A stretch of DNA of 45,534 nucleotides from Acidobacteriaceae bacterium (GTDB lineage: Bacteria; Acidobacteriota; Terriglobia; Terriglobales; Acidobacteriaceae). Positions within the stretch are counted from its first letter, which is position 1. Each line of letters opens with the position of its first letter. Location: contig JASHPJ010000151.1 in assembly GCA_030038195.1 (NCBI GenBank), positions 1 to 45,534 on the forward strand, in the 5' to 3' direction. The notes under the pieces were generated by a model, which saw only the letters and a list, made by a program, of their open reading frames with translations, had not been told where the DNA came from and did not search any database. Shown here one piece after another: positions 1-43,706 of this stretch. The translations under genes and the position numbers were made by a program.

Positions 1-58
1 TGTTGGCTGGCGGAAGGCCGTAGCCAGGGGCGGCGTTCGCTTGCTCTTGGGTCGCCAC
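1..58 (-). CDS. 5' end of a divergent gene, cut by window edge
   Basis: On the minus strand a GTG codon at 58-56 is preceded by GGAGG (68-64) at a spacing of 5 nt, which is a very good ribosome binding site. The frame then stays open to the window edge and reads MATQEQANAAPGYGLPPAN. Only 19 residues are visible, so no family can be assigned. The Ala/Pro/Gly-rich start resembles a flexible N-terminus rather than a signal peptide. It would be transcribed divergently from the GMC oxidoreductase gene, sharing the 59-379 intergenic region. Confidence 0.4.
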   Translation of the reverse strand, partial: MATQEQANAAPGYGLPPAN

Positions 59-379: not shown

Positions 380-2245
380 ATGAGTCTGGAAAACGCGGAG
401 TACGAATATATTGTTGTGGGCTCGGGCGCTGGCGGCGGCACGGTAGCGGCGCGCCTGGCCGAAGCCGGCCGGTCAGTGCTGTTGCTCGAGGCCGGCGGCG
501 ATCCCCGCAAACTGGCCGGTGGCGATCCCATTGATCCCAGCGGCAACCGGCTGCCGGTCGACTACGATGTGCCTGCCTTTCACGCCTTCGCTTCCGAAAA
601 CGAAGCAATGCGATGGGACTACTTTGTGCGCCACTACTCCGATGACGCCGCGCAGAAGCGCGACTGGAAGTACCGGGAGTGGTGGGACGGCAAAAGGGTG
701 GACGGCGTCCTCTATCCCCGTGCCGGAACGCTGGGCGGATGCACGGCCCACAACGCGCACGTTCTGATTTATCCGGAAAGCTCCGACTGGAAGCACATTG
801 AAGAACTGACCGGCGACGCGAGCTGGAATCCCAAGCGCATGCGCCGCTACTTTGAACGCCTGGAGAACTGTCGCTACCGGCCGCTGCTGCGGTGGTTGTC
901 GTGGCTCGGCATCAATCCCTCGCGCCATGGCTGGAAGGGCTGGCTGCACACGGAGAAGGCCATCCCGAAGGCCGCCATCGAGGAAGTCAATCTTTCCGAC
1001 ATGATCGTGAGCGACGCCAATACGGCTCTGCAGCTCTCGCGGAATATCGTGCGCAGCGTGCTGGGGCTGCTCCAGAGCTGGGCCGATCCCAACGACTGGC
1101 GCCGGGAGACCGGGCATCTTGAGGGCGTTTGCTATACCCCGCTCACCACCCGGAAGCACGCACGGAAGGGAACCAGGGAGCGGATCCTGGAGACTGCGCG
1201 CAGGCATCCAAACCTGAAACTGCAGCTCAATGCACTTGTGACGCGCGTGCTGCTCGATGAAAGCAATCGCGCAACCGGCGTGGAATGGATGGATGGCGAA
1301 CGACTCTATCGTGCAAGCTGGCGGCCGGCTGAGCAGGCGGGCGAACGGCGCGTAGTGCAGGCAAAGAAAGAAGTGATTCTAGCCGGCGGCGCTTTCAACA
1401 CGCCGCAATTGCTCATGCTTTCGGGCCTCGGCCCGCGCGCTGTGCTGGAGCGGTTTGGCATCTCGGTGCGCGTCGATCTGCCGGGAGTGGGACAAAACCT
1501 GCAGGACCGTTACGAAATCGGCGTGGTTCATCGCATGAACTTTCCGGAGTGGGACGTTTTCAAAGACGTTCGCTTTGCGCCTGGCGATCCGCAATTTGCG
1601 CAGTGGGAGCGCAGCCGCAGCGGAGTCTACACGACCAACGGCGCAGTGCTTGCGGTCTTTCGCCGCTCACCCGTTGCCGCCGGGCCGCCTGACCTGTTTT
1701 GCATGGGGCTGCTCACGGATTTTCAGGGATACTATCCCGACTACTCGCGCGTACTCCGCGAGAAACTCAATTACCTTACCTGGGTGGTGCTCAAGGCGCA
1801 TACGCGCAATCGCGCCGGAGAAGTGACGCTCCGCTCTGCCGATCCGCGTGACATGCCACGCATCGACTTCCGTTACTTTGCAGAGGGCGCCGAAAAAGAC
1901 CTCGACGCAGTGGTAGACGGCATCCGTTTCATCCGCAAGCTCACTGCTCGTCTTCGCGCCAGCGGGCATGCGACAGAAGAGGTTCCCGGCGAGTCGGTGG
2001 AGAGCGACGAGGATTTGCGCGCGTTTGTCCGCAACAACGCGTGGGGCCATCATGCGTCGTGCACCTGCGCCATTGGCCCGCGCGAGAACAACGGCGTGCT
2101 GACCAGTGACTTCAAGGTGCACGGCACAACCGGCCTGCGCGTTGTGGATGCATCCATCTTCCCGCGCATTCCCGGAACATTTATCGTCAGCGCCATTTAT
2201 ACCGCTGCCGAAAAGGCAGCCGACCGGATCCTGGCGGAATCCTGA
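380..2245 (+). CDS. GMC-family FAD-dependent oxidoreductase
   Basis: This is a flavoprotein of the glucose-methanol-choline oxidoreductase family, which oxidises alcohol groups (sugars, sterols, choline, long-chain alcohols) using FAD. The FAD-binding Rossmann motif is at the N-terminus (IVVGSGAGGGTVAARLAEAG). The GMC signature-like stretch with PRAGTLGGCTAHNAH follows at about residues 110-125. The C-terminal substrate domain carries the active-site His region (WGHHASCTCAIG) and ends in VVDASIFPRIPGTFIV. The usual second catalytic His/Asn position is not obvious in this C-terminus, as in some GMC subgroups. At 621 aa it is slightly longer than typical bacterial choline dehydrogenases (about 540-560). 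There is no signal peptide, so it is probably cytoplasmic. The start at 380 (MSLENAEY) has GGTGG just upstream; 365 is an alternative five codons earlier. It is followed by the DyP and cytochrome genes on the same strand, which suggests a shared oxidative pathway. Substrate unknown. Confidence 0.9.
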   Translation: MSLENAEYEYIVVGSGAGGGTVAARLAEAGRSVLLLEAGGDPRKLAGGDPIDPSGNRLPVDYDVPAFHAFASENEAMRWDYFVRHYSDDAAQKRDWKYREWWDGKRVDGVLYPRAGTLGGCTAHNAHVLIYPESSDWKHIEELTGDASWNPKRMRRYFERLENCRYRPLLRWLSWLGINPSRHGWKGWLHTEKAIPKAAIEEVNLSDMIVSDANTALQLSRNIVRSVLGLLQSWADPNDWRRETGHLEGVCYTPLTTRKHARKGTRERILETARRHPNLKLQLNALVTRVLLDESNRATGVEWMDGERLYRASWRPAEQAGERRVVQAKKEVILAGGAFNTPQLLMLSGLGPRAVLERFGISVRVDLPGVGQNLQDRYEIGVVHRMNFPEWDVFKDVRFAPGDPQFAQWERSRSGVYTTNGAVLAVFRRSPVAAGPPDLFCMGLLTDFQGYYPDYSRVLREKLNYLTWVVLKAHTRNRAGEVTLRSADPRDMPRIDFRYFAEGAEKDLDAVVDGIRFIRKLTARLRASGHATEEVPGESVESDEDLRAFVRNNAWGHHASCTCAIGPRENNGVLTSDFKVHGTTGLRVVDASIFPRIPGTFIVSAIYTAAEKAADRILAES

Positions 2246-2287
2246 GCGCTGCGATGTGTCCGGCGACTGCCGCAGCGGAAAAAGTCA

Positions 2288-2317
2288 TTGACAATCAATT
2301 CGATGCAATTCAATAAT
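2288..2317 (+). promoter_or_regulatory. Putative sigma-70 promoter of the DyP/cytochrome operon
   Basis: A perfect TTGACA (-35) lies at 2288-2293, with AATAAT (-10-like) at 2312-2317 after an 18-bp spacer. It sits in the 138-bp gap after the GMC gene and 66 bp before the next start codon. The downstream gene has AAGGAG at a good spacing before its ATG. It suggests that the genes from 2384 onward can be transcribed independently of the GMC gene. Confidence 0.45.
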
Positions 2318-2383
2318 TGCCCACCAGCTTCATAGCGGATAAGCCGGTCATCTCCGCATCATTTCGGCAAGGAGCTACGCGAA

Positions 2384-2842
2384 ATGGCTTACGATGTCCC
2401 CCAATTGCTCCAGATGTCCTCTGCTGACCTGGATTCACTCTTTTCTGCAAGCCCGGCAGGCGACATCCCCAACGGTCCGGCCAAAGGCACGGCAATCGTT
2501 GCGTCAGGCACCGTGTTCAGTCCTGAGATTGCCGAGATCATCAGCCTGTTTGTCTGGCAGGGCAAGACCTTTGACGGCGCGCACGGAGTGCTGCGCAATC
2601 GCATTCTGCCCTTCGGCATCAGCGCCATCGTCGCCGAGGTATACAAGGGCCCGAGCCTGCTCGACAATAAGGAGTGCATCGTCCTCGACTACTCAAAGAC
2701 CTCTGAAGTTGCGCAGTGGATTCGCGACGAAATCCGGCTGATTGCGTCCGATTTTTACCTGGGGCGCGTCTATTGGAGCGGCAAGCCGCTCATTCACTTT
2801 TGTCTCCAGTTCGGCGCAGCCGCCGCTCCGGCGCAGTCTTGA
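2384..2842 (+). CDS. Small conserved-looking protein of unknown function
   Basis: A 152-aa soluble protein with no signal peptide and no membrane segment. I do not recognise the family. The start ATG at 2384 has AAGGAG 9 nt upstream, which makes this start secure. The middle part is hydrophobic and beta-rich (EIISLFVWQGKTFDG, ILPFGISAIVAEVYKG). The C-terminus reads RDEIRLIASDFYLGRVYW followed by SGKPLIHFCLQF, which reads like the core of a small beta-barrel ligand-binding or lipocalin-like fold; this is only an impression. It lies between a GMC oxidoreductase and a DyP peroxidase. The phrase DFYLGRVYW followed by a hydrophobic strand would suit binding of a hydrophobic substrate shared by the enzymes of the cluster. 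Confidence 0.75.
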   Translation: MAYDVPQLLQMSSADLDSLFSASPAGDIPNGPAKGTAIVASGTVFSPEIAEIISLFVWQGKTFDGAHGVLRNRILPFGISAIVAEVYKGPSLLDNKECIVLDYSKTSEVAQWIRDEIRLIASDFYLGRVYWSGKPLIHFCLQFGAAAAPAQS

Positions 2843-2981
2843 ACGCAGCGCACGAAACGGAAAACGCAATCAGCACACTAAACTCATAAGACTGCGGCAT
2901 GCGCAGCGAGAACCGGGCCCCTCGTTTGAGGCAATGCCTGCCGCTTTCCCCGCTCCCGGCGCAAACAGGGACGGGATAGAA

Positions 2982-4301
2982 ATGGATCGCGTCCCCATGA
3001 TGCCGCAATCCAACCTGCTGGTCGCGGCACCGCTCCGCGCGGAGCGCGAGGCGGAGTTACGCGCTCTGCTCGCGTCTATGAACGAGGCGCCGGGCCGCGT
3101 CAATCCAGCCAACGACATCCTTCCTTTCGAGCAGTTCGCGCAGCTTCACGTTGCCCGGCTGGTCATTCTTGAAGACCAGACGGTCAGCGACCTGCACCTC
3201 GCCTATGGAGGCTCCGCACCCAACTATCCGCTGATACTCGCGTTTCTAGCGGACTTCGACGGGTCAGCGGACGCGTTTCGCGCTGATCTGGCCGTGCGCG
3301 CCGGCAAAGGCCTGGAGCGCATCTTTTCCTGCTGCCACGGATTCACAGCCGGCACAGACATTGCACAGTGGATGAAGAAGCACGAAACGCCGCCGGCGAC
3401 GAACTACATCAACTGGCTGGGCCGCACCGTGAGCCAGGTTCGCGAAGAAGATGCGCTGCGGCTCGCGCTTGAAGACCATTTGCAGAGCCATGCCTCGCTC
3501 TTTGCCGCCATGGGCCTGAAGGAAACCCATGCGGCGTTGCGTGAGTTCATGCTAGGCGAGATTCGTGCCGGCCGGCTTGCCGTGACTCCGCAGCCGCCCA
3601 CTCCGCTGGGCTGGCGCCTGCACAATCTGCTCCATCTCGTCGGCGTGCCGCTGTTGCTGCTTTTGCTCGCGCCGCTACTCATCCTGTATCTGCCCATCTT
3701 CGCCATTCAGCTTCGCAGCCGCGAGAAAACTGATCCTGAGATTGCGCCGCGCGTGAAGGCGAGTTACGCAGAGGAGCTGGCCACTATCGAAGACTACGAC
3801 GTGACCAACCAGTTCACGGCCATGGGCAGCCTCAAGCCCGGGCTGTTCCGCCGCTGGACGCTTGCATTCCTGCTGTGGGCGTTGAACTGGACCACGCGTC
3901 ACATTTATACGCGCGGCCAGCTCGCGCGCGTAGGCACCATTCACTTTGCGCGCTGGGTCTTTATCAATGGCCGAAGGCGGCTACTGTTCGCCAGCAACTA
4001 CGACGGCGCCCTGGAAACCTACATGGACGATTTCATCAATAAAGTTGGCTGGGGATTGAACCTGGTATTCAGCAACGGGGTCGGCTATCCGTCATCGCGC
4101 TGGCTCATCCTCGACGGTGCAAAGGACGAGCAGAAGTTCAAGAATTTTCTTCGCCGGCACGAGCTGCCCACGCAGGTCTGGTACAAGGCATATCCCGGGC
4201 TGACGGCGTTCGATCTCAAGCGTAACACCCTCATTCGCGAGGGAATTGAAAAGTCTTCATTGCCGGATGCGGATTTGCGGCAATGGGTGGCGTTGTTTTA
4301 G
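2982..4301 (+). CDS. Membrane protein with two similar modules, unknown function
   Basis: About 439 aa from the ATG at 2982, which has AGGGACGGGA just upstream; the frame is open further upstream to 2742, but that part overlaps the previous gene and lacks a good start. The N-terminal module contains LHVARLVIL, then LAFLADFDG and GLERIFSCCHGF. The C-terminal module contains IHFARWVFI, then LLFASNYDG and GLNLVFSNGVGY. The two modules share the order H-x-A-R-x-V, DG and G-L-x-x-(I/V)-F, so they look like an internal duplication. Between them is a strongly hydrophobic hairpin (VGVPLLLLLLAPLLILYLPIFAI), and a second hydrophobic stretch (LAFLLWALNW) precedes the second module. It ends only 12 bp before the DyP peroxidase start, so the two are co-transcribed. 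Function unknown; a membrane partner of the DyP enzyme is inferred from position. Confidence 0.75.
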   Translation: MDRVPMMPQSNLLVAAPLRAEREAELRALLASMNEAPGRVNPANDILPFEQFAQLHVARLVILEDQTVSDLHLAYGGSAPNYPLILAFLADFDGSADAFRADLAVRAGKGLERIFSCCHGFTAGTDIAQWMKKHETPPATNYINWLGRTVSQVREEDALRLALEDHLQSHASLFAAMGLKETHAALREFMLGEIRAGRLAVTPQPPTPLGWRLHNLLHLVGVPLLLLLLAPLLILYLPIFAIQLRSREKTDPEIAPRVKASYAEELATIEDYDVTNQFTAMGSLKPGLFRRWTLAFLLWALNWTTRHIYTRGQLARVGTIHFARWVFINGRRRLLFASNYDGALETYMDDFINKVGWGLNLVFSNGVGYPSSRWLILDGAKDEQKFKNFLRRHELPTQVWYKAYPGLTAFDLKRNTLIREGIEKSSLPDADLRQWVALF

Positions 4302-4312
4302 AGGAGCAGTGG

Positions 4313-5845
4313 ATGTCTGCAGCGGTGGATTACTCGGATGTGCAGGGGCTGGTGCGCTTCGGCTTTGCCCATATGAACGAGGCCGCGTACCTGCTGCTGC
4401 GCGTCCGCAATCCCGCCGCTGCGCGCGCATGGCTAGATCAGGCGCCAGTCACCACGGCAGCCGACCGCAGCCCCGTGCCTTCTACCGCGTTGCAGATTGC
4501 ATTCACGCACCAGGGGCTTGAAGCGCTGCGCATCCCACAGCACGTCATCGCCGGATTTTCCGCCGAGTTTCTTTCAGGAATGGCCGGAGACGCCAACCGC
4601 TCGCGCCGTCTGGGCGACACGGGCGCGAACTCGCCCTCCGCGTGGCGGTGGGGCGGAGAAGGCAAGATTCCGCATGTGGTGGTCATGCTATTTGCAGAGG
4701 ATGGGCAACTGGATACCTGGCAGCAATCAGTGGCAACACCCCTGTTTCAGGGTGCGTTTGAAGAGATCGGACGGCTGGACACCTCCGATCTGGGCGGGCG
4801 CGAGCACTTCGGCTTCATCGATGGCGTCAGCCAGCCGCAGCTTGACTGGAGCCGCGCGCGCACGGTGAGCGTCAACGGCAATCAGCTTGCTTACGGCAAC
4901 GTGGTTTGTCTCGGTGAATTCCTGCTCGGCTATCCCAACGAATACAGCCGCTACACAGAGCGGCCGCTGCTCGACGCCGGCGAAGCGGGCAGCGACGAGC
5001 TGCCGCAAGCCGAAGACCAGCCTGCGAAGAAGGACCTGGGCAAAAACGGAACCTACGTTGTCATTCGCCAGCTTGAGCAGGATGTGCGCGCCTTCTGGCA
5101 GTACGTGGATGAAGCCACGAAGTCCCTGCATGAAACCGGTTACGGCCTTGCGGAGAGCATGGTCGGACGCAGGCTTGAGGATGGTGCGCCGCTGGTCCCG
5201 CTCAGCCAGTCGCCCGTTCCCGGCGTTGGCGATGCGGGAAGCGCAGCCAGGCGCCGGAAGGATGTACAGCTTAACCAGTTCACCTACGAGTCCGATCCCG
5301 ATGGCGCGAGTTGTCCGATTGGCGCGCACATTCGCCGCGGCAATCCGCGCACGGTCGATCTGCCCGGCCATCCGAAGGGATTACTGGCGCAGGCATTTCA
5401 CCTGCTCGGCTTTGGCGAGGCCAACCTGCACGACGATCTCGTTGCTTCGGTGCGCTTCCATCGCATTCTGCGCCGCGGCCGCGAGTATGGGCCGGCACTC
5501 TCGCCGGGGGAAGCCGTTCAGCCCGCGCCTTCCAACGATCCCGGGCGCGGGCTGCACTTCATCGCGCTCAACGCCAATATCGAGCGCCAATTCGAATTCG
5601 TGCAGAATGCATGGATGGCGCGGACGAAATTCGACGGCCTCACCGAAGAGAGCGATCCGCTGCTCGGCAACCGCGAGCCGGTAAAGGGCTGTCCTTTCAC
5701 CAACGCGTTCTCCATTCCGCAGGATGGCAAGGCGCGCAAGCGCCTGGTGGAGATGCCTCAATTTGTCACCGTGCGCGGCGGAGCGTATTTTTTCATGCCG
5801 GGCATCAGGGCCCTGAGATATTTAAGCAAGACCGGCGGCGCTTAA
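4313..5845 (+). CDS. DyP-type heme peroxidase
   Basis: Dye-decolorizing peroxidases use H2O2 to oxidise phenols, dyes and lignin-related compounds through a heme held by two ferredoxin-like domains. The hallmark GxxDG motif is visible as FGFIDGVSQP, with the distal Asp at about D170. The proximal heme ligand lies in CPIGAHIRRGNPR (about H339), and a likely distal Arg in VRFHRILRRG (about R381). GEFLLGYPNEYS, GTYVVIRQLEQDVRAFW and GLHFIALNANIERQFEFVQ are also typical. At 510 aa it belongs with the longer (C/D-like) classes. No Tat or Sec signal is seen, so it is probably cytoplasmic or associated with the upstream membrane protein. The start at 4313 has GAGGAG 7-8 nt upstream. It sits 12 bp after the two-module membrane protein and 31 bp before the cytochrome gene, so it is clearly in an operon. 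Its neighbour, a GMC oxidoreductase, could supply H2O2. Confidence 0.93.
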   Translation: MSAAVDYSDVQGLVRFGFAHMNEAAYLLLRVRNPAAARAWLDQAPVTTAADRSPVPSTALQIAFTHQGLEALRIPQHVIAGFSAEFLSGMAGDANRSRRLGDTGANSPSAWRWGGEGKIPHVVVMLFAEDGQLDTWQQSVATPLFQGAFEEIGRLDTSDLGGREHFGFIDGVSQPQLDWSRARTVSVNGNQLAYGNVVCLGEFLLGYPNEYSRYTERPLLDAGEAGSDELPQAEDQPAKKDLGKNGTYVVIRQLEQDVRAFWQYVDEATKSLHETGYGLAESMVGRRLEDGAPLVPLSQSPVPGVGDAGSAARRRKDVQLNQFTYESDPDGASCPIGAHIRRGNPRTVDLPGHPKGLLAQAFHLLGFGEANLHDDLVASVRFHRILRRGREYGPALSPGEAVQPAPSNDPGRGLHFIALNANIERQFEFVQNAWMARTKFDGLTEESDPLLGNREPVKGCPFTNAFSIPQDGKARKRLVEMPQFVTVRGGAYFFMPGIRALRYLSKTGGA

Positions 5846-5876
5846 ACGCCGCAATCATGCAGTGGAGGGTACTTCC

Positions 5877-8423
5877 GTGGCTGGAAAGCTCACTCGTTTT
5901 CTCGCAAAATCTCTGCTAGTCGTTGTCCTGTTGGTTGCAGCCTGCTTTGCGGCCTACGGAATCTGGTGGCTCAAACAGCCCAAGCCGGGCCACGTGAAAG
6001 ACGAGGCGTTGCTTGCCGGCCGGGATGCGTCAACGTTTCCCGCCGCCGATGAAGACTACTTCCACGACATGGATGGCGGCATCGATCTCACCGCCGCCGC
6101 GCCGCCCCAAGACAAGAAAGCGCTGATTAAAGGGCGCGATACATGGATCGTGTGGTCGGGTGGCAACGACAAGTTGTGGGACACGCTCGTCTACCGCAGC
6201 GCCGGCGCGCTGGACTTCCTCAAAGTGCTCTCCGACCATCCCGCGTTGCTCAAGATCGATCCGAATTTCAGCCGCGACCATCGCTGGGAGTATCTGGGAT
6301 TGATCAACGATCCGTGCTTTGAAAAAGCCACCGGCCCCGATCCCGACCGCTGGGGACTGTGGCTCGATAAGCGCCGCCCGGACTGCCAGCCCGATCCCTT
6401 CGAGAACGAGCAGAAGTATCCGGGTGTGAAGATCGGCTCGCGCGGAACCATCGTGGATGGCAAGCCATTTCCAGTCGGCTCGTATTACGGCTATGAGACG
6501 GGCATCGTCGGGCTGCGCCTGTTTCCCAATCCCGCATTCAACAGCGCGGCTGCCAGGCGCTGGGACCCGGTGCGCTATTACACCGATCCTTCGTATTACA
6601 ACGACAAGAAACTCATCCGCCCCTATCGCGTAGGCATGTCGTGCGGCTTTTGCCATATCGGGCCGAACCCGGTGAAGCCGCCCGCTGATCCCGACAATCC
6701 CAAGTGGGAGAATCTCAGCTCTGAAGTCGGCGCGCAATATTTCTGGATCGATCGCATCTTCTACTGGGAGGGCGATCAGTCGAACTTCGTCTGGCAGTTG
6801 TTCCACACCTCGCGTCCCGGCTCGCTCGACACATCGTTCATCTCCACCGACAACATCAACAACCCGCGCACGATGAATGCGGTGTATCTGCTGCAGGAGC
6901 GGCTGGACAACGCGCTGCGCTGGGGCAAGGAATCGCTCGAAGGACCACAGCGCGACAACAGGCAGCTCAACGATTATGTGAGCAGCGGTCCGCTGACCCG
7001 GTACTTCACGCCGCCGGGCACCGTCTACACGCCGCGCGTGCTCAAGGACGGCGCGGACTCGGTGGGCGTGCTGGGCGCACTGAATCGCGTCTTCCTCAAC
7101 ATCGGCACCTTCAGCGAGGAATGGCTGCTCCACTTCAACGCGCTGGTGGGCGGAAAGAAAGTGAGCCCGATTCCGATCGCCGTCGCGCGCAAGAACTCTG
7201 CGTACTTCGCGGCTACCGAGAACCAGACGCCGGATATGGCGCTGTTCCTGATAGCCGCCAGCGGACCGCATCATCTGGCCGATGCGCCCGGAGGCGCGGC
7301 GATCCTCAAGAAAGACGAGAACCTGGTGCCGCGTGGCAAGCAGGTCTTTGCCGAGCGCTGCGCGCGTTGCCACTCGAGCAAGCTGCCCGATCCGCCCGCC
7401 GATCTCCAGTCTATCGGCATGGAGAACGGCGGCGGCTGCGCGGGCAAGAACTACCTGAGCTGCTGGAATCGGTACTGGGCGTGGACGCAGACCGACGACT
7501 TCAAGCAGAAGATGACAAAGATCGTTGCAGCGCCGGACTTCCTCGACCACAATTATTTATCGACCGAGCTGCGCGTGCCGGTCACGCTGCTGCAGACAAA
7601 TGCCTGCAGTCCGCTGGCCACCAACGCAATCGCAGACAACATCTGGGACAACTTCTCTTCGCAGTCGTACAAAGATCTGCCATCCGTGGGAACCATCACC
7701 TGGTACGATCCGTTTACCGGAGAGCCGAAACAGTATGTGATGCCTGCCGGTGGCCGCGGCTATACGCGTCCGCCGTCGCTGGTGAGCCTGTGGTCCACGG
7801 CGCCGTTCCTGCTCAACAACAGCGTGGGCAAGTTCAATCCCGATCCGTCGGTGCAGGGAAGGCTCGATTCGTTCCAGGACTCGATCGAGCAGATGCTGTG
7901 GCCCGAGAAACGCGACAAGGACGAGGTGCTGGGTGACAAGATTCCCGGCAAGATCGACCGCACCACGCAGACCAGCTATCTGCGCATCTCCTACGGCTAC
8001 CTGCCTGACGCGCTGCAGAGCCTGCGCGGCATTGCGCGCTTCTTCCCTTGGCTGATCGACGACAAGGACAAGATGATCCAGATCGGACCGATTCCGAAAG
8101 GCACGCCGGTCGGCTTGCTCACCAACATCGACCCGCTCGGCGAGAGCACGGATCCTGCGGCCAGGCTTGCGCACGACAAGCAGTTGCTCGACCTGGTGGT
8201 GAAGATCAGCGCCGACCTGGCGAAGCTGCCGCCGGGAGCCACAGACGAGCAGGCGCGCCAGGTCTTCTCAAATGTTGCAGAGCAGATGCTGAGCCTGAGC
8301 AAATGCCCTGACCTGATCGTGAACCGCGGCCACTACTTCGGCACGAGCGAATTTGCCGGCGGCGAGCCGGGTCTGAGCGATGACGACAAGCGCGCCTTGA
8401 TCGCATTCCTCAAGCGGTTCTGA
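5877..8423 (+). CDS. Large membrane-anchored diheme c-type cytochrome
   Basis: An 848-aa protein with an N-terminal signal anchor (SLLVVVLLVAACFAAYGIWW) and a periplasmic body. Two heme c attachment motifs are visible: C256-GFC-H260 and C495-ARC-H499, about 240 residues apart. That spacing is far larger than in small diheme peroxidases and recalls big diheme oxygenases of the RoxA/LcpA type; I do not see enough to place it in that family. The C-terminal part contains the region GGRGYTRPPSLVSLWSTAPF typical of cytochrome-like domains in cytochrome c peroxidase relatives. The GTG at 5877 is preferred because GGAGGG lies 7 nt upstream. It is last in the operon and is followed by a hairpin terminator. 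Likely role: accept electrons from, or act on the same substrate as, the GMC/DyP enzymes, on the periplasmic side. Confidence 0.85.
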   Translation: MAGKLTRFLAKSLLVVVLLVAACFAAYGIWWLKQPKPGHVKDEALLAGRDASTFPAADEDYFHDMDGGIDLTAAAPPQDKKALIKGRDTWIVWSGGNDKLWDTLVYRSAGALDFLKVLSDHPALLKIDPNFSRDHRWEYLGLINDPCFEKATGPDPDRWGLWLDKRRPDCQPDPFENEQKYPGVKIGSRGTIVDGKPFPVGSYYGYETGIVGLRLFPNPAFNSAAARRWDPVRYYTDPSYYNDKKLIRPYRVGMSCGFCHIGPNPVKPPADPDNPKWENLSSEVGAQYFWIDRIFYWEGDQSNFVWQLFHTSRPGSLDTSFISTDNINNPRTMNAVYLLQERLDNALRWGKESLEGPQRDNRQLNDYVSSGPLTRYFTPPGTVYTPRVLKDGADSVGVLGALNRVFLNIGTFSEEWLLHFNALVGGKKVSPIPIAVARKNSAYFAATENQTPDMALFLIAASGPHHLADAPGGAAILKKDENLVPRGKQVFAERCARCHSSKLPDPPADLQSIGMENGGGCAGKNYLSCWNRYWAWTQTDDFKQKMTKIVAAPDFLDHNYLSTELRVPVTLLQTNACSPLATNAIADNIWDNFSSQSYKDLPSVGTITWYDPFTGEPKQYVMPAGGRGYTRPPSLVSLWSTAPFLLNNSVGKFNPDPSVQGRLDSFQDSIEQMLWPEKRDKDEVLGDKIPGKIDRTTQTSYLRISYGYLPDALQSLRGIARFFPWLIDDKDKMIQIGPIPKGTPVGLLTNIDPLGESTDPAARLAHDKQLLDLVVKISADLAKLPPGATDEQARQVFSNVAEQMLSLSKCPDLIVNRGHYFGTSEFAGGEPGLSDDDKRALIAFLKRF

Positions 8424-8435
8424 GCGGCAGAGAGA

Positions 8436-8474
8436 ATGCTGCGCAGAAAGTGACTTGCCTGCGCAGCATCTTTA
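8436..8474 (+). terminator. Hairpin terminator after the cytochrome gene
   Basis: An 11-bp perfect stem (ATGCTGCGCAG at 8436-8446 with CTGCGCAGCAT at 8459-8469), a 12-nt loop and a short T-rich tail (ctttatcgttt). It begins 13 bp after the cytochrome stop codon and would end the operon. Confidence 0.6.
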
Positions 8475-8570
8475 TCGTTTCATGCGGATCGTCGAGCAGC
8501 AGCCCCGGCGTATCGATGGCGATCCCGCGCGCCTTGCTGGAATGTCTTTAAGAAGCTCTGATTCAGTCGC

Positions 8571-8631
8571 CGTTTTGAAAGGGCACGACTTCAAGCTCAG
8601 GGCAGGCTTGAAGTCGTGCCTTTTCAAAACC
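8571..8631. repeat. Dispersed palindromic repeat, copy 1
   Basis: Two 25-bp arms (8571-8595 and 8607-8631) are inverted copies with only two mismatches; the core is TTTTGAAAGGGCACGACTTC. About 36 bp beyond the right arm (to about 8665, containing CCGATTGCCG and CTGGTTCAT) also match the flank of the copy at 32932-32985. The inner hairpin of the element at 12603-12698 has the same core. The hairpin lies between the cytochrome terminator and the aldehyde dehydrogenase promoter region; no gene is seen in the 390-bp gap. Confidence 0.8.
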
Positions 8632-8816
8632 GATTGCCGTCTCTGGTTCATTTTCTTCTCGCGCAGTCCTGGGCTTTTTGAGGCGCCGGCTGCCAGGCGT
8701 GTCGCGCCGGGTGTATCATGCTTTCGCTGCGGTGGCCTCCCACGGTTCACCGCTGCTTTTCCCTTGCCGGCTACGCATGGCGCAAAGCAAGCGGAACACC
8801 GAAGGAGGAGTTCACC

Positions 8817-10346
<1,530 letters not shown>

Positions 10347-10373
10347 ACCAACGCGCGTTTTAGCGCGAATACG

Positions 10374-10418
10374 GGTGCCCCATCCTTTCGCCGTCTTTGG
10401 GCGAAAGGATGGGGCACC
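10374..10418. repeat. Perfect 19-bp hairpin between aldB and DUF779
   Basis: GGTGCCCCATCCTTTCGCC at 10374-10392 is repeated perfectly in inverted orientation at 10400-10418, around a 7-nt loop. A smaller GC hairpin (CGCGC/GCGCG) lies just upstream at about 10352-10367. There is no T-tract after the large stem, so it is better explained as an intergenic repeat than as a terminator, although it could attenuate transcription into the DUF779 gene. Confidence 0.75.
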
Positions 10419-10445
10419 ACGGAATCCGACTCAACCGAGATTTCC

Positions 10446-10823
10446 ATGGCCGATCTTCCACAACAGGTCCTCGCAACCGATCTCGCCATTCACCTGATCC
10501 GTGTGCTGCGCCAGAAGCACGGACCGCTGATGTTTCACCAGTCCGGCGGATGCTGCGACGGCAGCTCGCCCATGTGCTATCCGCGCGGCGAGTTCCTGGT
10601 GGGCGACTCCGACGTGCAACTGGGCGAAGTGGATGGCGAGCCTTTCTACATGAGCCGCAGCCAGTTCGAGTACTGGAAGCACACGCAGCTCATTCTCGAC
10701 GTGGTGCCTGGCCGCGGCGGCCAGTTCTCGCTGGACAACGCCGAGGGCATGCGCTTCCTCATCCGCTCGCGCGTCTTTGCCGACGACGAGATTCGCGACC
10801 TGCGCGCAGCCGGCCGCATCTGA
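10446..10823 (+). CDS. DUF779 family protein, aldehyde dehydrogenase partner
   Basis: A 125-aa protein of the DUF779 family. The visible hallmarks are the N-terminal LIRVLRQKHGPLMFHQSGGC followed at once by CDGSSPMCYPRGEF, then a beta-rich body ending in GMRFLIRSRVF. Members are almost always encoded next to AldB/ExaC-type aldehyde dehydrogenases, as here. The paired cysteines in GGCCDGSSPMC could bind a metal. The biochemical role is not established; a helper or regulator of aldehyde oxidation is the common guess. Start ATG at 10446 follows a weak GAGA. It is soluble with no signal peptide. Confidence 0.9.
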   Translation: MADLPQQVLATDLAIHLIRVLRQKHGPLMFHQSGGCCDGSSPMCYPRGEFLVGDSDVQLGEVDGEPFYMSRSQFEYWKHTQLILDVVPGRGGQFSLDNAEGMRFLIRSRVFADDEIRDLRAAGRI

Positions 10824-11198: not shown

Positions 11199-12575
11199 AT
11201 GAGTGTGGTGTCAATTCCGGACGCGGTCGCGATTTCCATCGCGGGCCAGTGCGACTGCGGCAAGGTACGCGAGGAAAACCAGGATCGAGCGCTGCATGTG
11301 AGCACGTCTCTCGGCGATCTCCTGATCGTCGCCGATGGAATTGGCGGCTACCCTGGCGGCGGCGTGGCCTCGCAGATGGCGGTGGACACGGTCTCTTCGT
11401 GCGTCAGGGGAATGCCCACTTTCTTCCCGCCTGAGATTGCCGTTGAAGAGGCTATCTGCCACGCCAATGCCGCTATCGCCGCCGCGGCTGCAGAGCCGGA
11501 CTCTCCGAACAACCACATGGGCACCACGATGATTGCCGCTCTGTTGCGCACGGACCCCGATCGCGCGCACGCACCCGTGCAGGCGATCATCGCCCATGTG
11601 GGCGACAGCCGCGCTTACCTGGTTCACAACCAGAAGCTCGCGCAGCTCACGCGCGACCACTCCGTGGTACAGGATCTGCTCGACAGCGACAGGATTACGC
11701 CCCAGGAGGCGGAGAACCATCCGGATGCGTCAATGCTGACGCGCTGCCTTGGCCATGAGCCCAGCGTGCAGGTCGAGATGCGCGAGGTACCGCTCGAAGT
11801 GGGCGATACGCTGCTGCTATGCTCTGACGGGCTCTGGGGCTACGTTTCTGACCGCGAGATCGAGCGTGTTCTTGCCGATCGCGCTCTCGATGTGGAGTCG
11901 GCGGCCAGGACCCTGCTCGATCTGGCTCTCGCCGCTGGCGGCCACGACAATATCGGCATCCAACTGGCGCGCATCCGCGTGCCCGACGTTCACGCCGCCG
12001 CGCGCGCATCTTCGCCCGCACCGCACATCGCAGACCCCACTCGCCAGGAGAATCCGGTTGCAAAGCCGGTACTACGCAAGCCGGCTTCAGGCGTTGCCGC
12101 CAAAAAGAACGCGGTCTCGCCTACAGTTGAGTCCATATCCCAGGCCACGCCCACGCCGTCGGCGCGCAGACCGGCCCCAGGCGTCGCGTCCACGTGGAAG
12201 CCGGTTTTGCCGCCAGCCGAGACCATTCTTACAATCGTGCCCGCGCCACCGCCGGCACCTTTGCCCGCGGCTCCTGCTTACAAGTCCGCGCCACCGCCCG
12301 CTCCTGCGCCCGTACCGGTCATCGAACTGGCTGCTGCCACTCAAATCAATCCCGCGCGCTACGCGGACTCCATGATGTTGCCTGAGCTGATCGTCGTGCC
12401 CAGAATCGAATCCATTTCCGCTCCCAGATCGTCCATTGCTTCCACGCCGGAGCCTGCGCAGATCGGATTCGCGCGGCTCGCCGCAATCTTTCTGCTTGCC
12501 TTTGCCGCATCAGGCACGCTGGCCTATCTTGCGCTGGTGTACGACTGGCTGGGGATTCTGCACCTGGCGCGCTGA
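11199..12575 (+). CDS. PP2C-family serine/threonine phosphatase with C-terminal anchor
   Basis: A metal-dependent protein Ser/Thr phosphatase (PPM/PP2C). The conserved motifs occur in order: REENQDRAL, IVADGIGG, GTTMIAALL, HVGDSRAYL, LTRDHSVVQ, CLGHEP, LLLCSDGLWGYVSDREI and GGHDNIGIQLARI. The acidic residues of IVADGIGG, CSDGLWG and GHDN bind the two Mn2+/Mg2+ ions. The catalytic domain covers about residues 1-255. It is followed by a roughly 160-aa linker rich in Pro and Ala, and a C-terminal membrane helix (LAAIFLLAFAASGTLAYLALV). The enzyme should therefore be tethered with the phosphatase on the cytoplasmic side. It would reverse Hanks-type kinase signalling; no kinase gene is in this window. 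Start ATG at 11199; no strong ribosome binding site is seen. Confidence 0.93.
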   Translation: MSVVSIPDAVAISIAGQCDCGKVREENQDRALHVSTSLGDLLIVADGIGGYPGGGVASQMAVDTVSSCVRGMPTFFPPEIAVEEAICHANAAIAAAAAEPDSPNNHMGTTMIAALLRTDPDRAHAPVQAIIAHVGDSRAYLVHNQKLAQLTRDHSVVQDLLDSDRITPQEAENHPDASMLTRCLGHEPSVQVEMREVPLEVGDTLLLCSDGLWGYVSDREIERVLADRALDVESAARTLLDLALAAGGHDNIGIQLARIRVPDVHAAARASSPAPHIADPTRQENPVAKPVLRKPASGVAAKKNAVSPTVESISQATPTPSARRPAPGVASTWKPVLPPAETILTIVPAPPPAPLPAAPAYKSAPPPAPAPVPVIELAAATQINPARYADSMMLPELIVVPRIESISAPRSSIASTPEPAQIGFARLAAIFLLAFAASGTLAYLALVYDWLGILHLAR

Positions 12576-12602
12576 GCGCCCGGCCGGCCTTAAATCACCT
12601 TA

Positions 12603-12698
12603 GAACCTGTTTAAAAACTTGATGTTTTGAAAGGGCATGGCTTTAGCCGTGCCCTTTCAAGGCTCTTGCCTTGCCCGGATGAGTTTTTGGACAGGTTC
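12603..12698. mobile_element. 96-bp MITE-like element with TTA target duplication
   Basis: The ends are inverted repeats: GAACCTGT at 12603-12610 and ACAGGTTC at 12691-12698, extending inwards as GAACCTGT-yy-AAAAACT with two mismatches. The flanks are TTA at 12600-12602 and TTA at 12699-12701, a candidate 3-bp target duplication. Inside is a 16-bp hairpin (12627-12642 / 12645-12660) whose core matches the dispersed hairpins at 8571 and 32932. A TNA target and GA-starting ends are known for some IS5-family groups, so an IS5-type transposase may have moved it (inference). The right-hand TTA is, on the minus strand, the TAA stop of the diguanylate cyclase gene. Confidence 0.65.
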
Positions 12699-41750: not shown

Positions 41751-41827
<77 letters not shown>

Positions 41828-41831
41828 TAAA

Positions 41832-43106
41832 TCAAGCACTTGCAGCAACCCTTCCGATCGACTTCGCCGAACTTCGCCGAATTCCATTCAGACCTTTAAG
41901 ATTCCTCCCCTTCAGGCCCAAACTTTCCTCCGGCATTCTCCAATCGCCGAGCACCGCCGACGTGCGCGAGTTCACGGCGGCGAGGACGCTCTCTTCGATT
42001 GTCTGAACGTAAACGTCGCCCGTCGTCTTAATGCTCGCGTGACGCAACATGCCTTGTGTGTCTTTCAGGGTTCCATGCTGCTGCATGTCCGTTCCCAGTG
42101 TCCGGCGCATCACCTGGAAGGTGACCAGCCGATCCGGGATGCCCAACTTCTGGGCGACCGGGCGAACGCGCCATTTAAGGAAGTTTTTTCCCCATCGTGG
42201 CACTGCCTGTCCCTTCCGTTCTCCACGTCCGAACGTGGGGAACATCAGGGCCTCCGGCGAAGAGTCCTTCGAGAGCCTCCGCCAGGCTTCGATCACGGGC
42301 CGCACTTGCTCGGGAACCGGAATCGGCGCCTTGCTTTGCTTGGTCTTCAGTCGGCCGCTGTAGAACTGCCCTTCATAGGCCGTCCCGTACGGCTGAAGTG
42401 CTTCACCCGTCCAGGACTTCCATTGCAGGCCCATGACTTCACTCGCGCGAGGGCCACAGAAGATGCCGACCTGAAGGAGACAGAGATCGTGCATGTCCTC
42501 AATACCGTTGACGAGGCCCAGAATCTGGTCCTGCGTCATCACTGGTTTTTCAACCGGCTTGGTCTGAGGCATTGTCACGTCTTCTCCTGGGTCTTCCTTA
42601 AGGAACTTCTGCTTGCGAGCCATTGCGGTGATCGCACGGACGTTTGAATAACAAGATCGAACAACCGACTCGGAATAATCTTCAGCCATTCCGTTCAACC
42701 AGATTTGAATCTGGAACGAATCGAGCTTGCGCAGTGGAAGATCACCGAATTTTGAGATCAGATAACGTTCAATCTGATCGGTATTGGTTTGCTTGTAGGC
42801 CGGGCTCCATTTGCCCTGCCGCATCGGGATGTAGCGTTCCTTGACGAACCATCGAAACGTCACTGCTTCGTCTTGCTGAACACTGGGCATTTCAGCGAGA
42901 ATCCCGCAATCCTTGAGGATCATCTCCCGCAACAGCTGTTCGGCCTTCCACTTCGGATTGCCCGCTTTGGGGCAGATCGGCACGTTGCGGTGCTTCCGGA
43001 CCTCCTTTCCTAGGTTGTTCTGCCCGTAGATGAGGTACTTCCCGTACCACATCTTCACCTTCTTCCCACTCGGGTAGACGGTGCCCTTCTGATACTTCAT
43101 TGCCAT
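41832..43106 (-). CDS. Tyrosine recombinase (integrase)
   Basis: A 424-aa phage/ICE-type tyrosine recombinase for site-specific insertion at tRNA-Asn. A SAM-like core-binding domain (IQIWLNGMAEDYSESVVRS) precedes the catalytic part. The catalytic residues are R220 in GPRASEVMGLQW, R334 in FQVMRRTLGTD, H356 in MLRHASIKTTGDVY and the nucleophile Y366. The His that usually starts the HxxR box is Gln (Q331), as in a known acidobacterial-type variant (from recollection). The ATG at 43106 has GGAG 6 nt upstream; the TTG at 43166 is an alternative. It faces the tRNA. Confidence 0.93.
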   Translation of the reverse strand: MAMKYQKGTVYPSGKKVKMWYGKYLIYGQNNLGKEVRKHRNVPICPKAGNPKWKAEQLLREMILKDCGILAEMPSVQQDEAVTFRWFVKERYIPMRQGKWSPAYKQTNTDQIERYLISKFGDLPLRKLDSFQIQIWLNGMAEDYSESVVRSCYSNVRAITAMARKQKFLKEDPGEDVTMPQTKPVEKPVMTQDQILGLVNGIEDMHDLCLLQVGIFCGPRASEVMGLQWKSWTGEALQPYGTAYEGQFYSGRLKTKQSKAPIPVPEQVRPVIEAWRRLSKDSSPEALMFPTFGRGERKGQAVPRWGKNFLKWRVRPVAQKLGIPDRLVTFQVMRRTLGTDMQQHGTLKDTQGMLRHASIKTTGDVYVQTIEESVLAAVNSRTSAVLGDWRMPEESLGLKGRNLKGLNGIRRSSAKSIGRVAASA

Positions 43107-43167
43107 TTCGTTCTCCGGTTTCTGCTTCCGGTCCTGGTCGTGGAGAACAATTCCTTCATACACCAAA

Positions 43168-43446
43168 TCAGGAGCGACGGAAAGTGGAAATGGTGTTCAA
43201 TTCAGCCATGAAAATCTCAACATCGGCAGCTCGGTAGCGAAGGAGCTTGCCTAGCTTCACGCCAGGAATTCGCGGAGAGCGGCGCGTTGTGTGATCGCGG
43301 ATGAATCGTTCGGATACGCCGAGTTTGGCGGCTACCTGGCGTGCATCGAGCAGGCGATCATCGTCTCGCTCTGGAGTGACATCGGTGCTCAGTGCGACCG
43401 AAGAGGCCGGAGTCGGCATCACATTTGGCGCCGTGGCAGTTGTCAT
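43168..43446 (-). CDS. AlpA/excisionase-like helix-turn-helix protein
   Basis: A 92-aa DNA-binding protein. The winged helix-turn-helix is LLDARQVAAKLGVSERFIRD, followed by SPRIPGVKLGKLLRYRAADV, the pattern of AlpA/Xis-type factors. GAGGTG precedes the ATG at 43446. It lies directly upstream of the integrase, so it probably directs excision or regulates the integrase gene. Its first 30 residues are an unstructured Thr/Ser/Pro-rich stretch. Confidence 0.85.
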   Translation of the reverse strand: MTTATAPNVMPTPASSVALSTDVTPERDDDRLLDARQVAAKLGVSERFIRDHTTRRSPRIPGVKLGKLLRYRAADVEIFMAELNTISTFRRS

Positions 43447-43499
43447 GGTTCACCTCGGGGGATTCATTTCATTCACGTCCACGCTCAGCGCGTTGAAGG

Positions 43500-43697
43500 T
43501 CAGTGCATATTACCTTTCTCGATCTTGTTCGCGTCCTGTTCTGCCATCCGACACACTTCCGCAGATGTGTCGGAACGAAGGCACTCCTGAAATCCTTTGC
43601 AGGTAGCTTGGGAATCTGCAGGATCGCACGCAACATGCTTCTTGCAGCCGGACAGAATCAACAGAGCGAGAAGCGATGGAATGATGAACAGGCGCAT
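43500..43697 (-). CDS. Small lipoprotein, TrbK-like
   Basis: A 65-aa lipoprotein: signal peptide and lipobox in LLALLILSGCKK, with Cys18 as lipid anchor, then a Cys-containing mature part (HVACDPADSQATCKGFQECL). It follows the trbI-like gene by 9 bp, with GGAG 5 nt before the ATG at 43697. Small lipoproteins in this position of conjugation operons (TrbK type) serve in entry exclusion; the identity here is by position and shape only. Confidence 0.65.
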   Translation of the reverse strand: MRLFIIPSLLALLILSGCKKHVACDPADSQATCKGFQECLRSDTSAEVCRMAEQDANKIEKGNMH

Positions 43698-43706
43698 GTC
43701 AGCTCC

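What the first reader, a model, noticed from the sequence alone, without database searches (positions are those of the whole stretch)
380..10823. Possible alcohol-oxidation system: GMC + two unknowns + DyP + giant diheme cytochrome + AldB/DUF779
Seen: seven same-strand genes with very short gaps from 2384 to 8423 and an AldB/DUF779 pair following. Known: GMC enzymes oxidise alcohols, DyP uses H2O2, AldB oxidises aldehydes. Inference: the block could oxidise a hydrophobic or lignin-like alcohol to acid, using two unknown proteins as binding or membrane components. The combination of a cytoplasmic DyP without export signal and a periplasmic diheme cytochrome in one operon is unusual.
Basis: partly seen in the sequence, partly recalled or inferred. 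Interest (0 to 1): 0.62.

Follow-up and report, generated by a model that had tools for sequence, protein, structure and literature searches.

The report
Conserved bacterial lipid-oxidation gene module
A soil acidobacterium carries a set of genes, shared by bacteria of about ten phyla including nitrifiers, that looks like a little-known pathway for making and converting oxidised lipids, and it suggests a natural job for a class of peroxidase whose purpose has been unclear.

Summary
The block is real, but its edges differ from those given. Its parts are GMC (380-2245), U152 (2384-2842), U439 (2982-4301), DyP (4283-5845) and a diheme cytochrome (5862-8423), plus a catalase-like gene running off the left edge (1-58, minus strand; the rest is on contig C114). 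AldB/DUF779 does not belong.

Anchored on U439, 80 loci of ten named phyla all have DyP beside it. In the 45 loci with full flanks, U152 is in 43, the catalase-like gene in 44, the cytochrome in 36, GMC in 28, AldB/DUF779 in 0. The nine without the cytochrome carry an alpha-dioxygenase-like enzyme; five loci add a lipoxygenase. Patatin genes recur. One distant catalase-like relative lies between two lipoxygenases. Natural proteins fuse P450, the U439 C-terminal half and DyP.

Best reading: a dioxygenase makes a lipid hydroperoxide, which catalase-like and DyP heme enzymes convert, with a lipocalin-like U152, a membrane-anchored U439 barrel and GMC. The chemistry is inferred; nothing was assayed. 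The alcohol/lignin reading is not supported; the operon and the binding/membrane guesses are.

The parts
1..58 (-). 5' end (GTG start at 58) of the divergent catalase-like gene; the contig ends inside it, and the rest lies on contig C114:2-1165 of the same genome
   Evidence: Minus-strand translation ends ...GYGLPPAN, resembling residues 23-30 of the L020 homologue; C114 resumes at residue 41, 73% identical. L020 has the same divergent arrangement. The two pieces were not joined.
380..2245 (+). GMC flavoenzyme (FAD alcohol oxidoreductase)
   Evidence: PF05199 E 1.6e-30, PF00732 E 2.1e-26; nearest PDB choline dehydrogenase/oxidase-like, also alcohol oxidases and fatty acid photodecarboxylase; in full-flank loci present only where the cytochrome is, 28 of 28
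2288..2317 (+). sigma-70-like promoter site TTGACA-18-AATAAT before U152
   Evidence: 11 of 12 consensus positions; number of such sites not above shuffles; consensus match only
2384..2842 (+). U152, predicted lipocalin/FABP-like beta-barrel
   Evidence: AlphaFold2 pLDDT 80.6, best PDB match 4mve (Foldseek E 2.4e-4; Z 11.4, 130 aligned, rmsd 3.3); in 43 of 45 full-flank loci, there always on the strand of U439; on the other strand in L030 and L031
2982..4301 (+). U439, predicted ABM/SchA-like double ferredoxin-like barrel with a hydrophobic helical hairpin about residues 209-250 (likely start codon 3000)
   Evidence: AlphaFold2 pLDDT 92.1; 9lmn Z 13.3 (222 aligned, rmsd 4.1), 9ltx Z 11.0; followed by DyP on the same strand, overlapping or within 150 bp, in 80 of 80 loci (start codons estimated)
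4283..5845 (+). DyP-type peroxidase (likely start ATG 4313)
   Evidence: DyP_N 28.3 bits (cut-off 27.5), Dyp_perox_C 24 bits (cut-off 20); D180, H349, R397/R398 invariant in 23 aligned rows; PDB DyP relatives to E 1.4e-74
5862..8423 (+). large diheme c-type cytochrome, distantly related to RoxA, probably membrane-anchored or periplasmic (likely start GTG 5877)
   Evidence: CxxCH at 261-265 and 500-504, invariant H824 in GHxFG; 40%-identical paralogue L026:1453-3621 passes PF21419 and a profile of that group hits RoxA 4b2n best (E 0.0095)
8572..8630 (.). 25-bp inverted repeat, 9-nt loop, between the module and AldB; boundary feature, not part of the module

Best explanation
The genes left of about 8430 form a patchily distributed but widely shared module for making and converting lipid (most likely fatty-acyl) hydroperoxides, that is, a bacterial oxylipin-type pathway. 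Proposed working: (1) patatins or lipases free acyl chains (seen in some loci, not in the window); (2) a dioxygenase adds O2 to an unsaturated chain: in the window this would be the RoxA-related diheme cytochrome, elsewhere an alpha-dioxygenase-like heme enzyme or a lipoxygenase; (3) the hydroperoxide is handed over, perhaps by the lipocalin-like U152 and at the membrane by U439; (4) the catalase-like protein (heme framework apparently kept, distal His apparently replaced by Asn) rearranges or cleaves it, and DyP, probably in contact with U439, reduces or further oxidises it; (5) GMC oxidises the resulting alcohol, perhaps giving electrons to the cytochrome. Shown here: gene content, linkage, fold predictions, conserved residue patterns, the U439-DyP fusion. 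Inferred: every chemical step, the substrate and the order. Whether the product is a signal, a catabolite or a detoxified lipid is open.
For: Linkage: 80 loci (the best 80 of 171; 77 of them classed, ten named phyla); of 45 with full flanks, DyP 45, catalase-like 44, U152 43, cytochrome 36 (three of these at 26-28% identity), GMC 28, alpha-DOX-like 15 (two at 27%), lipoxygenase 5. All 45 have the cytochrome or the alpha-DOX-like enzyme: 30 cytochrome only, 9 DOX only, 6 both. The DOX profile (11 of 18 loci) is nearest plant alpha-dioxygenases (4kvj E 1.1e-72; lactoperoxidase 7.9e-6); VYRxH in 16 of 21 ORFs, several of them fragments. Lipoxygenase PF00305 E 2.4e-62; patatin; one class 3 lipase. 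The only PDB chains under E 1 for the catalase-like profile are coral allene oxide synthase-lipoxygenase (E 0.0085, 0.071). A 38%-identical catalase-like gene lies between two lipoxygenase genes (L126). Independent anchor: catalase-like at E<1e-100 in 5 of 396 acidobacterial genomes, all five among the six with U439 at E<1e-40; the four other than the window's have the partners within 10 kb in differing order, one contig ending before the cytochrome. P450-U439C-DyP fusions. Precedents: P. aeruginosa diheme 10S-DOX (PMC4496055, abstract, passages, section 21); Nostoc 10S-DOX with a catalase-related hydroperoxide lyase (PMC13049297, passage).
Against: No activity, transcript or product was measured. 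In the window's genome no alpha-DOX homologue was found (an empty result without positive control) and lipoxygenase was not sought, so step 2 rests on the diheme cytochrome. The window cytochrome is below the Pfam RoxA-like cut-off (12.8 vs 26.7 bits) and has Leu where RoxA and PA2077 have the MauG-motif His. The link of the catalase-like family to catalase/AOS is weak: the segment that fixes the distal site scored -0.4 bits, hhalign with a catalase gave probability 21.6, and Pfam gave nothing. If the alignment holds, the distal His of coral AOS is Asn here, so AOS chemistry cannot be assumed. Of seven distant catalase-like loci examined, five had neither lipoxygenase nor DyP. Most bacteria concerned are not known to make polyunsaturated fatty acids (general knowledge). 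The compartments seem to differ (cytochrome exported, DyP not). Alpha-DOX and lipoxygenase are in a minority of loci.
Confidence: 0.56

Rival explanations
1. Isoprenoid route: the RoxA-related cytochrome cleaves C=C bonds of a polyisoprenoid or terpenoid (rubber-like polymer, carotenoid, squalene, hopanoid); GMC and the heme enzymes process the aldehydes, alcohols and peroxides.
For: RoxA 4b2n is the best PDB hit of the paralogue profile; for the paralogue L026, NCBIfam RoxB, RoxC and RoxA models match weakly; two shorter RoxA-like cytochromes lie beside the cytochrome homologue on Rhizobium pRL11.
Against: The nine full-flank loci without the cytochrome have an alpha-dioxygenase-like enzyme, some loci add lipoxygenase or patatin; the Rox matches are far below the NCBIfam cut-offs.
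Confidence: 0.18
2. Defence rather than synthesis: the module detects and removes lipid peroxides formed by oxidative stress; the dioxygenase-like genes are optional additions.
For: The most constant genes are the processing ones (U152, U439, DyP, catalase-like) rather than a dioxygenase of one type (U439 was the anchor); in P. aeruginosa the PA2078 step relieves hydroperoxide toxicity (PMC4496055 section 21).
Against: All 45 full-flank loci still hold a dioxygenase candidate; the module is rare (full-length U439 in 1 of 21 genomes of the genus), unlike a general stress defence.
Confidence: 0.18
3. One reading: an alcohol-oxidation system for a hydrophobic or lignin-like alcohol that ends in acid by AldB/DUF779.
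For: GMC and ExaC-type AldB are well identified and lie on one strand; another aldehyde dehydrogenase (27-31% identical) lies in L047, L064 and L074.
Against: AldB/DUF779 absent from 45 of 45 full-flank loci; the pair occurs without full-length U439 in 5 other genomes of the genus; 393-bp gap with an inverted repeat. Aromatic-pathway neighbours were not searched for as such.
Confidence: 0.05
4. Chance neighbours with no common function.
For: Operon-like spacing alone would not exclude it.
Against: Recurrence in ten named phyla, rearranged but linked sets, and the gene fusion.
Confidence: 0.02

Closest known systems
Oleate-diol synthase operon of Pseudomonas aeruginosa (PA2077 10S-DOX, PA2078 7,10-DS; FadCcp family; PMC4496055)
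   Same: Large exported diheme cytochromes related to RoxA, operon pairing of hydroperoxide-forming and hydroperoxide-consuming heme enzymes
   Different: Two diheme enzymes of about 67 kDa do it there; here one diheme protein of 853 aa sits with DyP, a catalase-like protein, U152, U439 and GMC. No sequence comparison with PA2077/PA2078 was made.
Nostoc punctiforme linoleate 10S-DOX with its catalase-related hydroperoxide lyase (Brash et al. 2014, as cited in PMC13049297 and PMC9579011; not read itself)
   Different: The dioxygenase there is a COX relative, in these loci alpha-DOX-like or diheme; the catalase-like protein here seems to have Asn for the distal His; there are further genes. No sequence comparison was made.
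Coral allene oxide synthase / hydroperoxide lyase-lipoxygenase fusions (cAOS, 1u5u, 3dy5; PMC5617202)
   Same: Only PDB relatives of the catalase-like profile under E 1 (0.0085, 0.071); conserved Arg, Arg, Tyr, Arg at matching spacings; a relative lies between two lipoxygenases
   Different: Distal Thr-His aligns with Gly-Asn; not fused; similarity very low
Rubber oxygenases RoxA/RoxB (PMC6311187)
   Same: Two c-type hemes, C-terminal axial-His region; a paralogue passes the Pfam RoxA-like model
   Different: Larger, MauG-motif His is Leu in the window protein, different gene company
DyP peroxidases such as PDB 8re3, 7anv (named D-type) and 5c2i (class V by recall)
   Same: Catalytic Asp, proximal His and Arg kept
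   Different: Tied to U439 by linkage and, on some plasmids, fused to a U439-like domain and a P450-like domain

Membership tests
RoxA/FadCcp-type diheme oxygenase (cytochrome 5862-8423) | Two CxxCH heme motifs in a large exported monomer | tested here: met
   Two CxxCH in 56 of 60 ORFs matched, the other four with one or none and not inspected; hydrophobic N-terminus in 47 of 60, lipobox-like in 23 of 60, crude rule; export and monomer state not shown
RoxA/FadCcp-type diheme oxygenase (cytochrome 5862-8423) | C-terminal heme axial His region (RoxA H641) | tested here: met
   GHxFG in 58 of 60; the paralogue profile aligns this end with RoxA 638-662
RoxA/FadCcp-type diheme oxygenase (cytochrome 5862-8423) | Passes the Pfam RoxA-like model PF21419 | tested here: not met
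   12.8 bits, cut-off 26.7; the paralogue L026:1453-3621 passes with 28.5
RoxA/FadCcp-type diheme oxygenase (cytochrome 5862-8423) | MauG-motif His | tested here: not met
   Leu in the window protein and in 37 of 60; His in 10, Gln in 5, pattern not found in 8
RoxA/FadCcp-type diheme oxygenase (cytochrome 5862-8423) | F317/W302 equivalents and oxygenase activity | not tested
   No RoxA or PA2077 sequence was aligned over these positions; no assay
DyP-type peroxidase (4283-5845) | Pfam domains and catalytic Asp, proximal His, distal Arg | tested here: met
   all three motifs in 71 of 96 ORFs, several of the rest being fragments or remote DyPs; TIGR01413 below its cut-off, 84.7 vs 100.5
Heme catalase superfamily / catalase-related AOS-HPL (1-58 minus, C114) | Heme framework Arg (R64), Arg (R102), Tyr (Y353), Arg (R360) of cAOS | tested here: inconclusive
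   R123, R163, Y400, R407 invariant in 36 aligned rows; patterns in 69 of 70 matches, the odd one (L078) doubtful. R123/R163 correspond to R64/R102 in an HMMER segment of only -0.4 bits; Y400/R407 rests on spacing alone. cAOS residues from PMC5617202
Heme catalase superfamily / catalase-related AOS-HPL (1-58 minus, C114) | Distal His (H67) | tested here: inconclusive
   Asn126, invariant, aligns with H67 in the same low-scoring segment; the nearby H130 is replaced in 4 of 36 rows, so it is a poor alternative
Heme catalase superfamily / catalase-related AOS-HPL (1-58 minus, C114) | Profile similarity to catalase | tested here: inconclusive
   No Pfam match to E 0.05; cAOS E 0.0085; hhalign with a 280-aa part of the genome's own catalase-family protein probability 21.6, E 0.001, 181 columns
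GMC oxidoreductase (380-2245) | GMC_oxred_N and _C over cut-off | tested here: met
Lipocalin-like ligand binder (U152) | Lipocalin-like barrel | tested here: inconclusive
   Predicted barrel, 4mve Z 11.4, lipocalins only Z 5-6; ligand binding not testable here
ABM/SchA-like alpha+beta barrel (U439) | Two ferredoxin-like halves forming one barrel | tested here: met
   Predicted model, pLDDT 92; 9lmn Z 13.3, 222 aligned, rmsd 4.1
AldB/ExaC-DUF779 pair (8817-10823) | ExaC equivalog and DUF779 over cut-off | tested here: met
   956 vs 900 bits, DUF779 164.4 vs 25 bits; not part of the module

The most novel reading that the evidence does not exclude
A previously undescribed oxylipin pathway shared by about ten bacterial phyla, in which interchangeable dioxygenases (RoxA-like diheme cytochrome, alpha-DOX-like enzyme, lipoxygenase) feed one constant hydroperoxide-converting core made of a new catalase-related enzyme with Asn in place of the distal His, a membrane barrel U439 that docks a DyP peroxidase, and a lipid carrier U152. 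DyP would have a lipid hydroperoxide as its natural substrate.
Probability: 0.4. Interest if true: 0.82.

Novelty: new variant of a known kind. Interest (0 to 1): 0.66.

Why it matters
[quoted passage not shown] This module gives a defined gene set, present in cultured organisms such as Nitrosomonas europaea (L079), with which a general bacterial route could be tested. It also offers a concrete hypothesis for the natural role of some DyP peroxidases, whose physiological substrates are mostly unknown (my general knowledge), and gives two protein families without a match in the databases searched a structural and functional setting.

Tried and rejected
Rejected: AldB/DUF779 as part of the unit. 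Rejected: the lignin or aromatic reading; no aromatic-pathway gene was noted among the recurring clusters, though none was searched for as such. Rejected: foreign base composition as a sign of recent arrival: module 61.4% GC, rest of the window 61.6%. Weak: PDB sequence searches with U152 and U439 profiles gave only chance-level rows; the window-group cytochrome profile gave generic cytochromes c in the 60 of 82 rows shown, so the paralogue group was used. The profile comparison of the two cytochrome groups is not independent, as A4 holds members of A6; it is not used. U152 against lipocalins: Z 5-6 only, not claimed as membership. Terminator-like sites 10 vs mean 8.8 (sd 3.4) and promoter-like sites 3 vs mean 2.6 (sd 1.8) in shuffles: no excess. 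A search of the window for further copies of the inverted repeat found only itself. My first clustering of neighbours was swamped by antisense ORFs; it was replaced, in which some catalase-like genes were still hidden by antisense ORFs; one search recounts by BLAST.

Subsets used: A1 67 of 71 U152 matches (two of them trimmed long forms), A2 61 of 91, A3 35 of 70 plus the C114 piece, A4 28 of 60 plus a second cytochrome of L026, A5 23 of 96, A6 nine paralogues, A7 11 of 18; tree 83 of 91 U439 rows, chosen by length. The count 68 of 80 for the catalase-like gene includes L078, which lacks the motifs; 67 of 80 is the safer figure. Of ten weaker catalase-like genomes, seven were looked at.

Literature: nine searches listed no paper that seems to describe this gene set, judged from titles and starts of abstracts; several lists were cut (for example 20 of 33, 15 of 96, 12 of 59). 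One more was on GXWXG/DUF4334. Only open-licence PMC papers are held, so this is a weak negative. PMC13056722 was opened and proved irrelevant.

Full report
What is there. The window is the whole of contig C88 of an acidobacterial genome (153 contigs, 97.5% complete; phylum by its nearest named relatives). From the left edge: the 5' end of a catalase-like gene on the minus strand (1-58), then GMC 380-2245, U152 2384-2842, U439 2982-4301, DyP 4283-5845 and a diheme cytochrome 5862-8423, all on the plus strand. Then come 393 bp with a 25-bp inverted repeat, AldB/ExaC and DUF779.

The missing partner. A catalase-like protein from a relative (L020) was sought in the window's genome: one match, 73% identical, at the very end of contig C114, beginning at query residue 41. 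The minus strand at the start of the window encodes ...GYGLPPAN, resembling residues 23-30 of the same query. The contig break thus most likely lies inside this gene. L020 has the same divergent catalase-like/GMC layout.

Conservation. A scan of 84,980 species with U439 gave 171 relatives, of which the best 80 were kept. By record title, 77 of these fall in Acidobacteriota, Verrucomicrobiota, Pseudomonadota, Nitrospirota, Thermodesulfobacteriota, Myxococcota, Gemmatimonadota, Planctomycetota, Chloroflexota and Actinomycetota; many are metagenome bins, so the five phyla with a single record are unsure. U439 is followed by DyP on the same strand, overlapping or within 150 bp, in 80 of 80. In the 45 loci of at least 20.5 kb: U152 43, DyP 45, catalase-like 44, cytochrome 36, GMC 28, alpha-dioxygenase-like 15, lipoxygenase 5, AldB 0, DUF779 0. 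Three of the 36 cytochromes are only 26-28% identical, and two of the 15 dioxygenase-like genes 27%. GMC occurs only with the cytochrome, 28 of 28. Every one of the 45 has the cytochrome (30), the alpha-dioxygenase-like gene (9) or both (6).

An independent anchor. In 396 genomes of the phylum, a U439 match better than E 1e-40 occurs in six and a catalase-like match better than E 1e-100 in five; the five are all among the six. In the four of these other than the window's own, the partners lie within 10 kb but in differing order and orientation; one contig ends before the cytochrome. The sixth (L125) has only a diverged U439 and DyP. Linkage kept through rearrangement speaks for a shared function. 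The module is patchy: full-length U439 in 1 of 21 genomes of the genus, some of them incomplete; one other genome gave a weak C-terminal match. The U439 tree needs 12 changes of phylum where 9 is the least possible, which hints at transfer but does not prove it; base composition gives no sign of it.

What the parts look like. U152: predicted barrel (pLDDT 80.6), closest 4mve, a structural-genomics protein (Foldseek E 2.4e-4; Z 11.4, 130 aligned, rmsd 3.3), followed by designed barrels and lipocalins at Z 6.5 and below. From memory, 4mve belongs to a lipocalin-like GXWXG/DUF4334 type; no call shows this. U439: pLDDT 92, two ferredoxin-like halves as in WhiE-ORFI 9lmn (Z 13.3, 222 aligned, rmsd 4.1), with a long helical hairpin about 209-250 whose sequence is strongly hydrophobic. 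DyP: catalytic Asp, His and Arg invariant in 23 rows, PDB relatives to E 1.4e-74. Cytochrome: two CxxCH and a C-terminal GHxFG. A paralogue group, about 40% identical to it, has RoxA 4b2n as best PDB hit (E 0.0095), and its member in L026 passes the Pfam RoxA-like model. The window protein itself does not pass and lacks the MauG-motif His.

The catalase-like family. No Pfam or NCBIfam model matches the L020 member. The family profile finds only two PDB chains below E 1, both coral allene oxide synthase-lipoxygenase (E 0.0085 and 0.071). Comparison with the genome's own catalase-family protein is weak but collinear over 181 columns (probability 21.6). With the cAOS residues listed in PMC5617202 (R64, R102, R360, H67, T66, N137, Y353; passage), R123 and R163 stand at R64 and R102, and Gly-Asn126 at T66-H67, in an HMMER segment that itself scores only -0.4 bits; Y400 and R407 have the spacing of Y353 and R360. 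All of R123, N126, R163, Y400 and R407 are invariant in 36 rows and the patterns hold in 69 of 70 matches. N137 was not placed. So heme binding is likely, catalase activity unlikely, and the hydroperoxide chemistry is a prediction.

Why lipids. (a) The dioxygenase-like neighbour is far nearer plant alpha-dioxygenases (E 1.1e-72) than lactoperoxidase (7.9e-6), and carries a YRxH motif. (b) Lipoxygenase genes lie in five loci, all Nitrosomonas or Nitrosovibrio. (c) Patatin-like clusters occur in 9, 5 and 4 loci (one member of each of the first two checked by Pfam), an alpha/beta-hydrolase in 4, a class 3 lipase in one checked locus. (d) In L126 a catalase-like relative (38%) sits between two lipoxygenase genes. 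Of the seven distant catalase-like loci examined, this one has lipoxygenases, one (L132) has U439C and DyP, and five have neither. (e) On Rhizobium pRL11 a 46%-identical cytochrome is followed by GMC and patatin and preceded by two RoxA-like cytochromes and an old-yellow-enzyme homologue; no U152, U439, DyP or catalase-like match was found in that stretch. (f) Precedents: PA2077 of P. aeruginosa, a RoxA-related diheme protein, makes a 10S-hydroperoxide from oleate, and PA2078 relieves its toxicity (PMC4496055, abstract, passages, section 21); Nostoc pairs a heme dioxygenase with a catalase-related lyase (PMC13049297, passage).

DyP and U439. On plasmids of Novosphingobium and Sulfitobacter the C-terminal half of U439 lies behind a P450-like domain and in front of DyP in single annotated proteins of 1443 and 1620 residues. 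The P450 match is over the Pfam cut-off in the second (29.8 vs 22.8 bits) and just under it in the first (20.2). Short U439-C-like genes also stand beside DyP in other acidobacteria. This is good evidence that the two work together. P450s that use fatty-acid hydroperoxides exist in fungi fused to dioxygenases (PMC13049297 passages); that the P450 here replaces the catalase-like enzyme is only a thought.

The verdict. The gene set is a true functional unit by conservation, with AldB/DUF779 excluded. A lipid-hydroperoxide pathway explains the recurring partners best, at about 0.56. The main weak points are the lack of any assay, the diverged cytochrome in the window, the uncertain catalase kinship and the unknown substrate. 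Parts of the idea are known (diheme fatty-acid dioxygenases, catalase-related lyases); the combination, its spread and the roles of U152, U439 and DyP were not met in the papers listed by the nine searches named under Tried and rejected.

Noticed in passing
window 41752-44972: tRNA-Asn (41752-41826) directly followed by a tyrosine integrase (41832-43166, minus; PF00589 E 9.5e-9) and a TrbI-type conjugation protein (43707-44972, minus; PF03743 E 7e-49): likely an integrative conjugative element in tRNA-Asn running off the right end.
   Followed up: partly
L137:5829-10160 and L138:5787-10649: Single annotated proteins with a P450-like N-terminus, a U439-C-like middle and a DyP C-terminus on plasmids of Novosphingobium aromaticivorans and Sulfitobacter pontiacus.
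   Followed up: partly
L126:5144-9340: Lipoxygenase, catalase-like gene, lipoxygenase in a row in another acidobacterium.
   Followed up: partly
L139:5035-17387: Rhizobium plasmid pRL11: old-yellow-enzyme homologue, two RoxA-like cytochromes, the 46%-identical large cytochrome, GMC and patatin in a row.
   Followed up: partly
L045, L055, L059, L060, L061, L063, L098: Variant loci with a 26-28%-identical cytochrome, a U152-like part in a larger protein (about 290-370 aa) and a further protein of about 656 aa (cluster c5), four of the seven from Nitrospira.
   Followed up: no
window 8572-8630: 25-bp near-perfect inverted repeat between the cytochrome gene and AldB; terminator or repeat element.
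   Followed up: no
window 11199-15626: Large protein with regulator-propeller repeats, Y_Y_Y domain and GGDEF output on the minus strand (12699-15626), beside a PP2C phosphatase (11199-12575).
   Followed up: no
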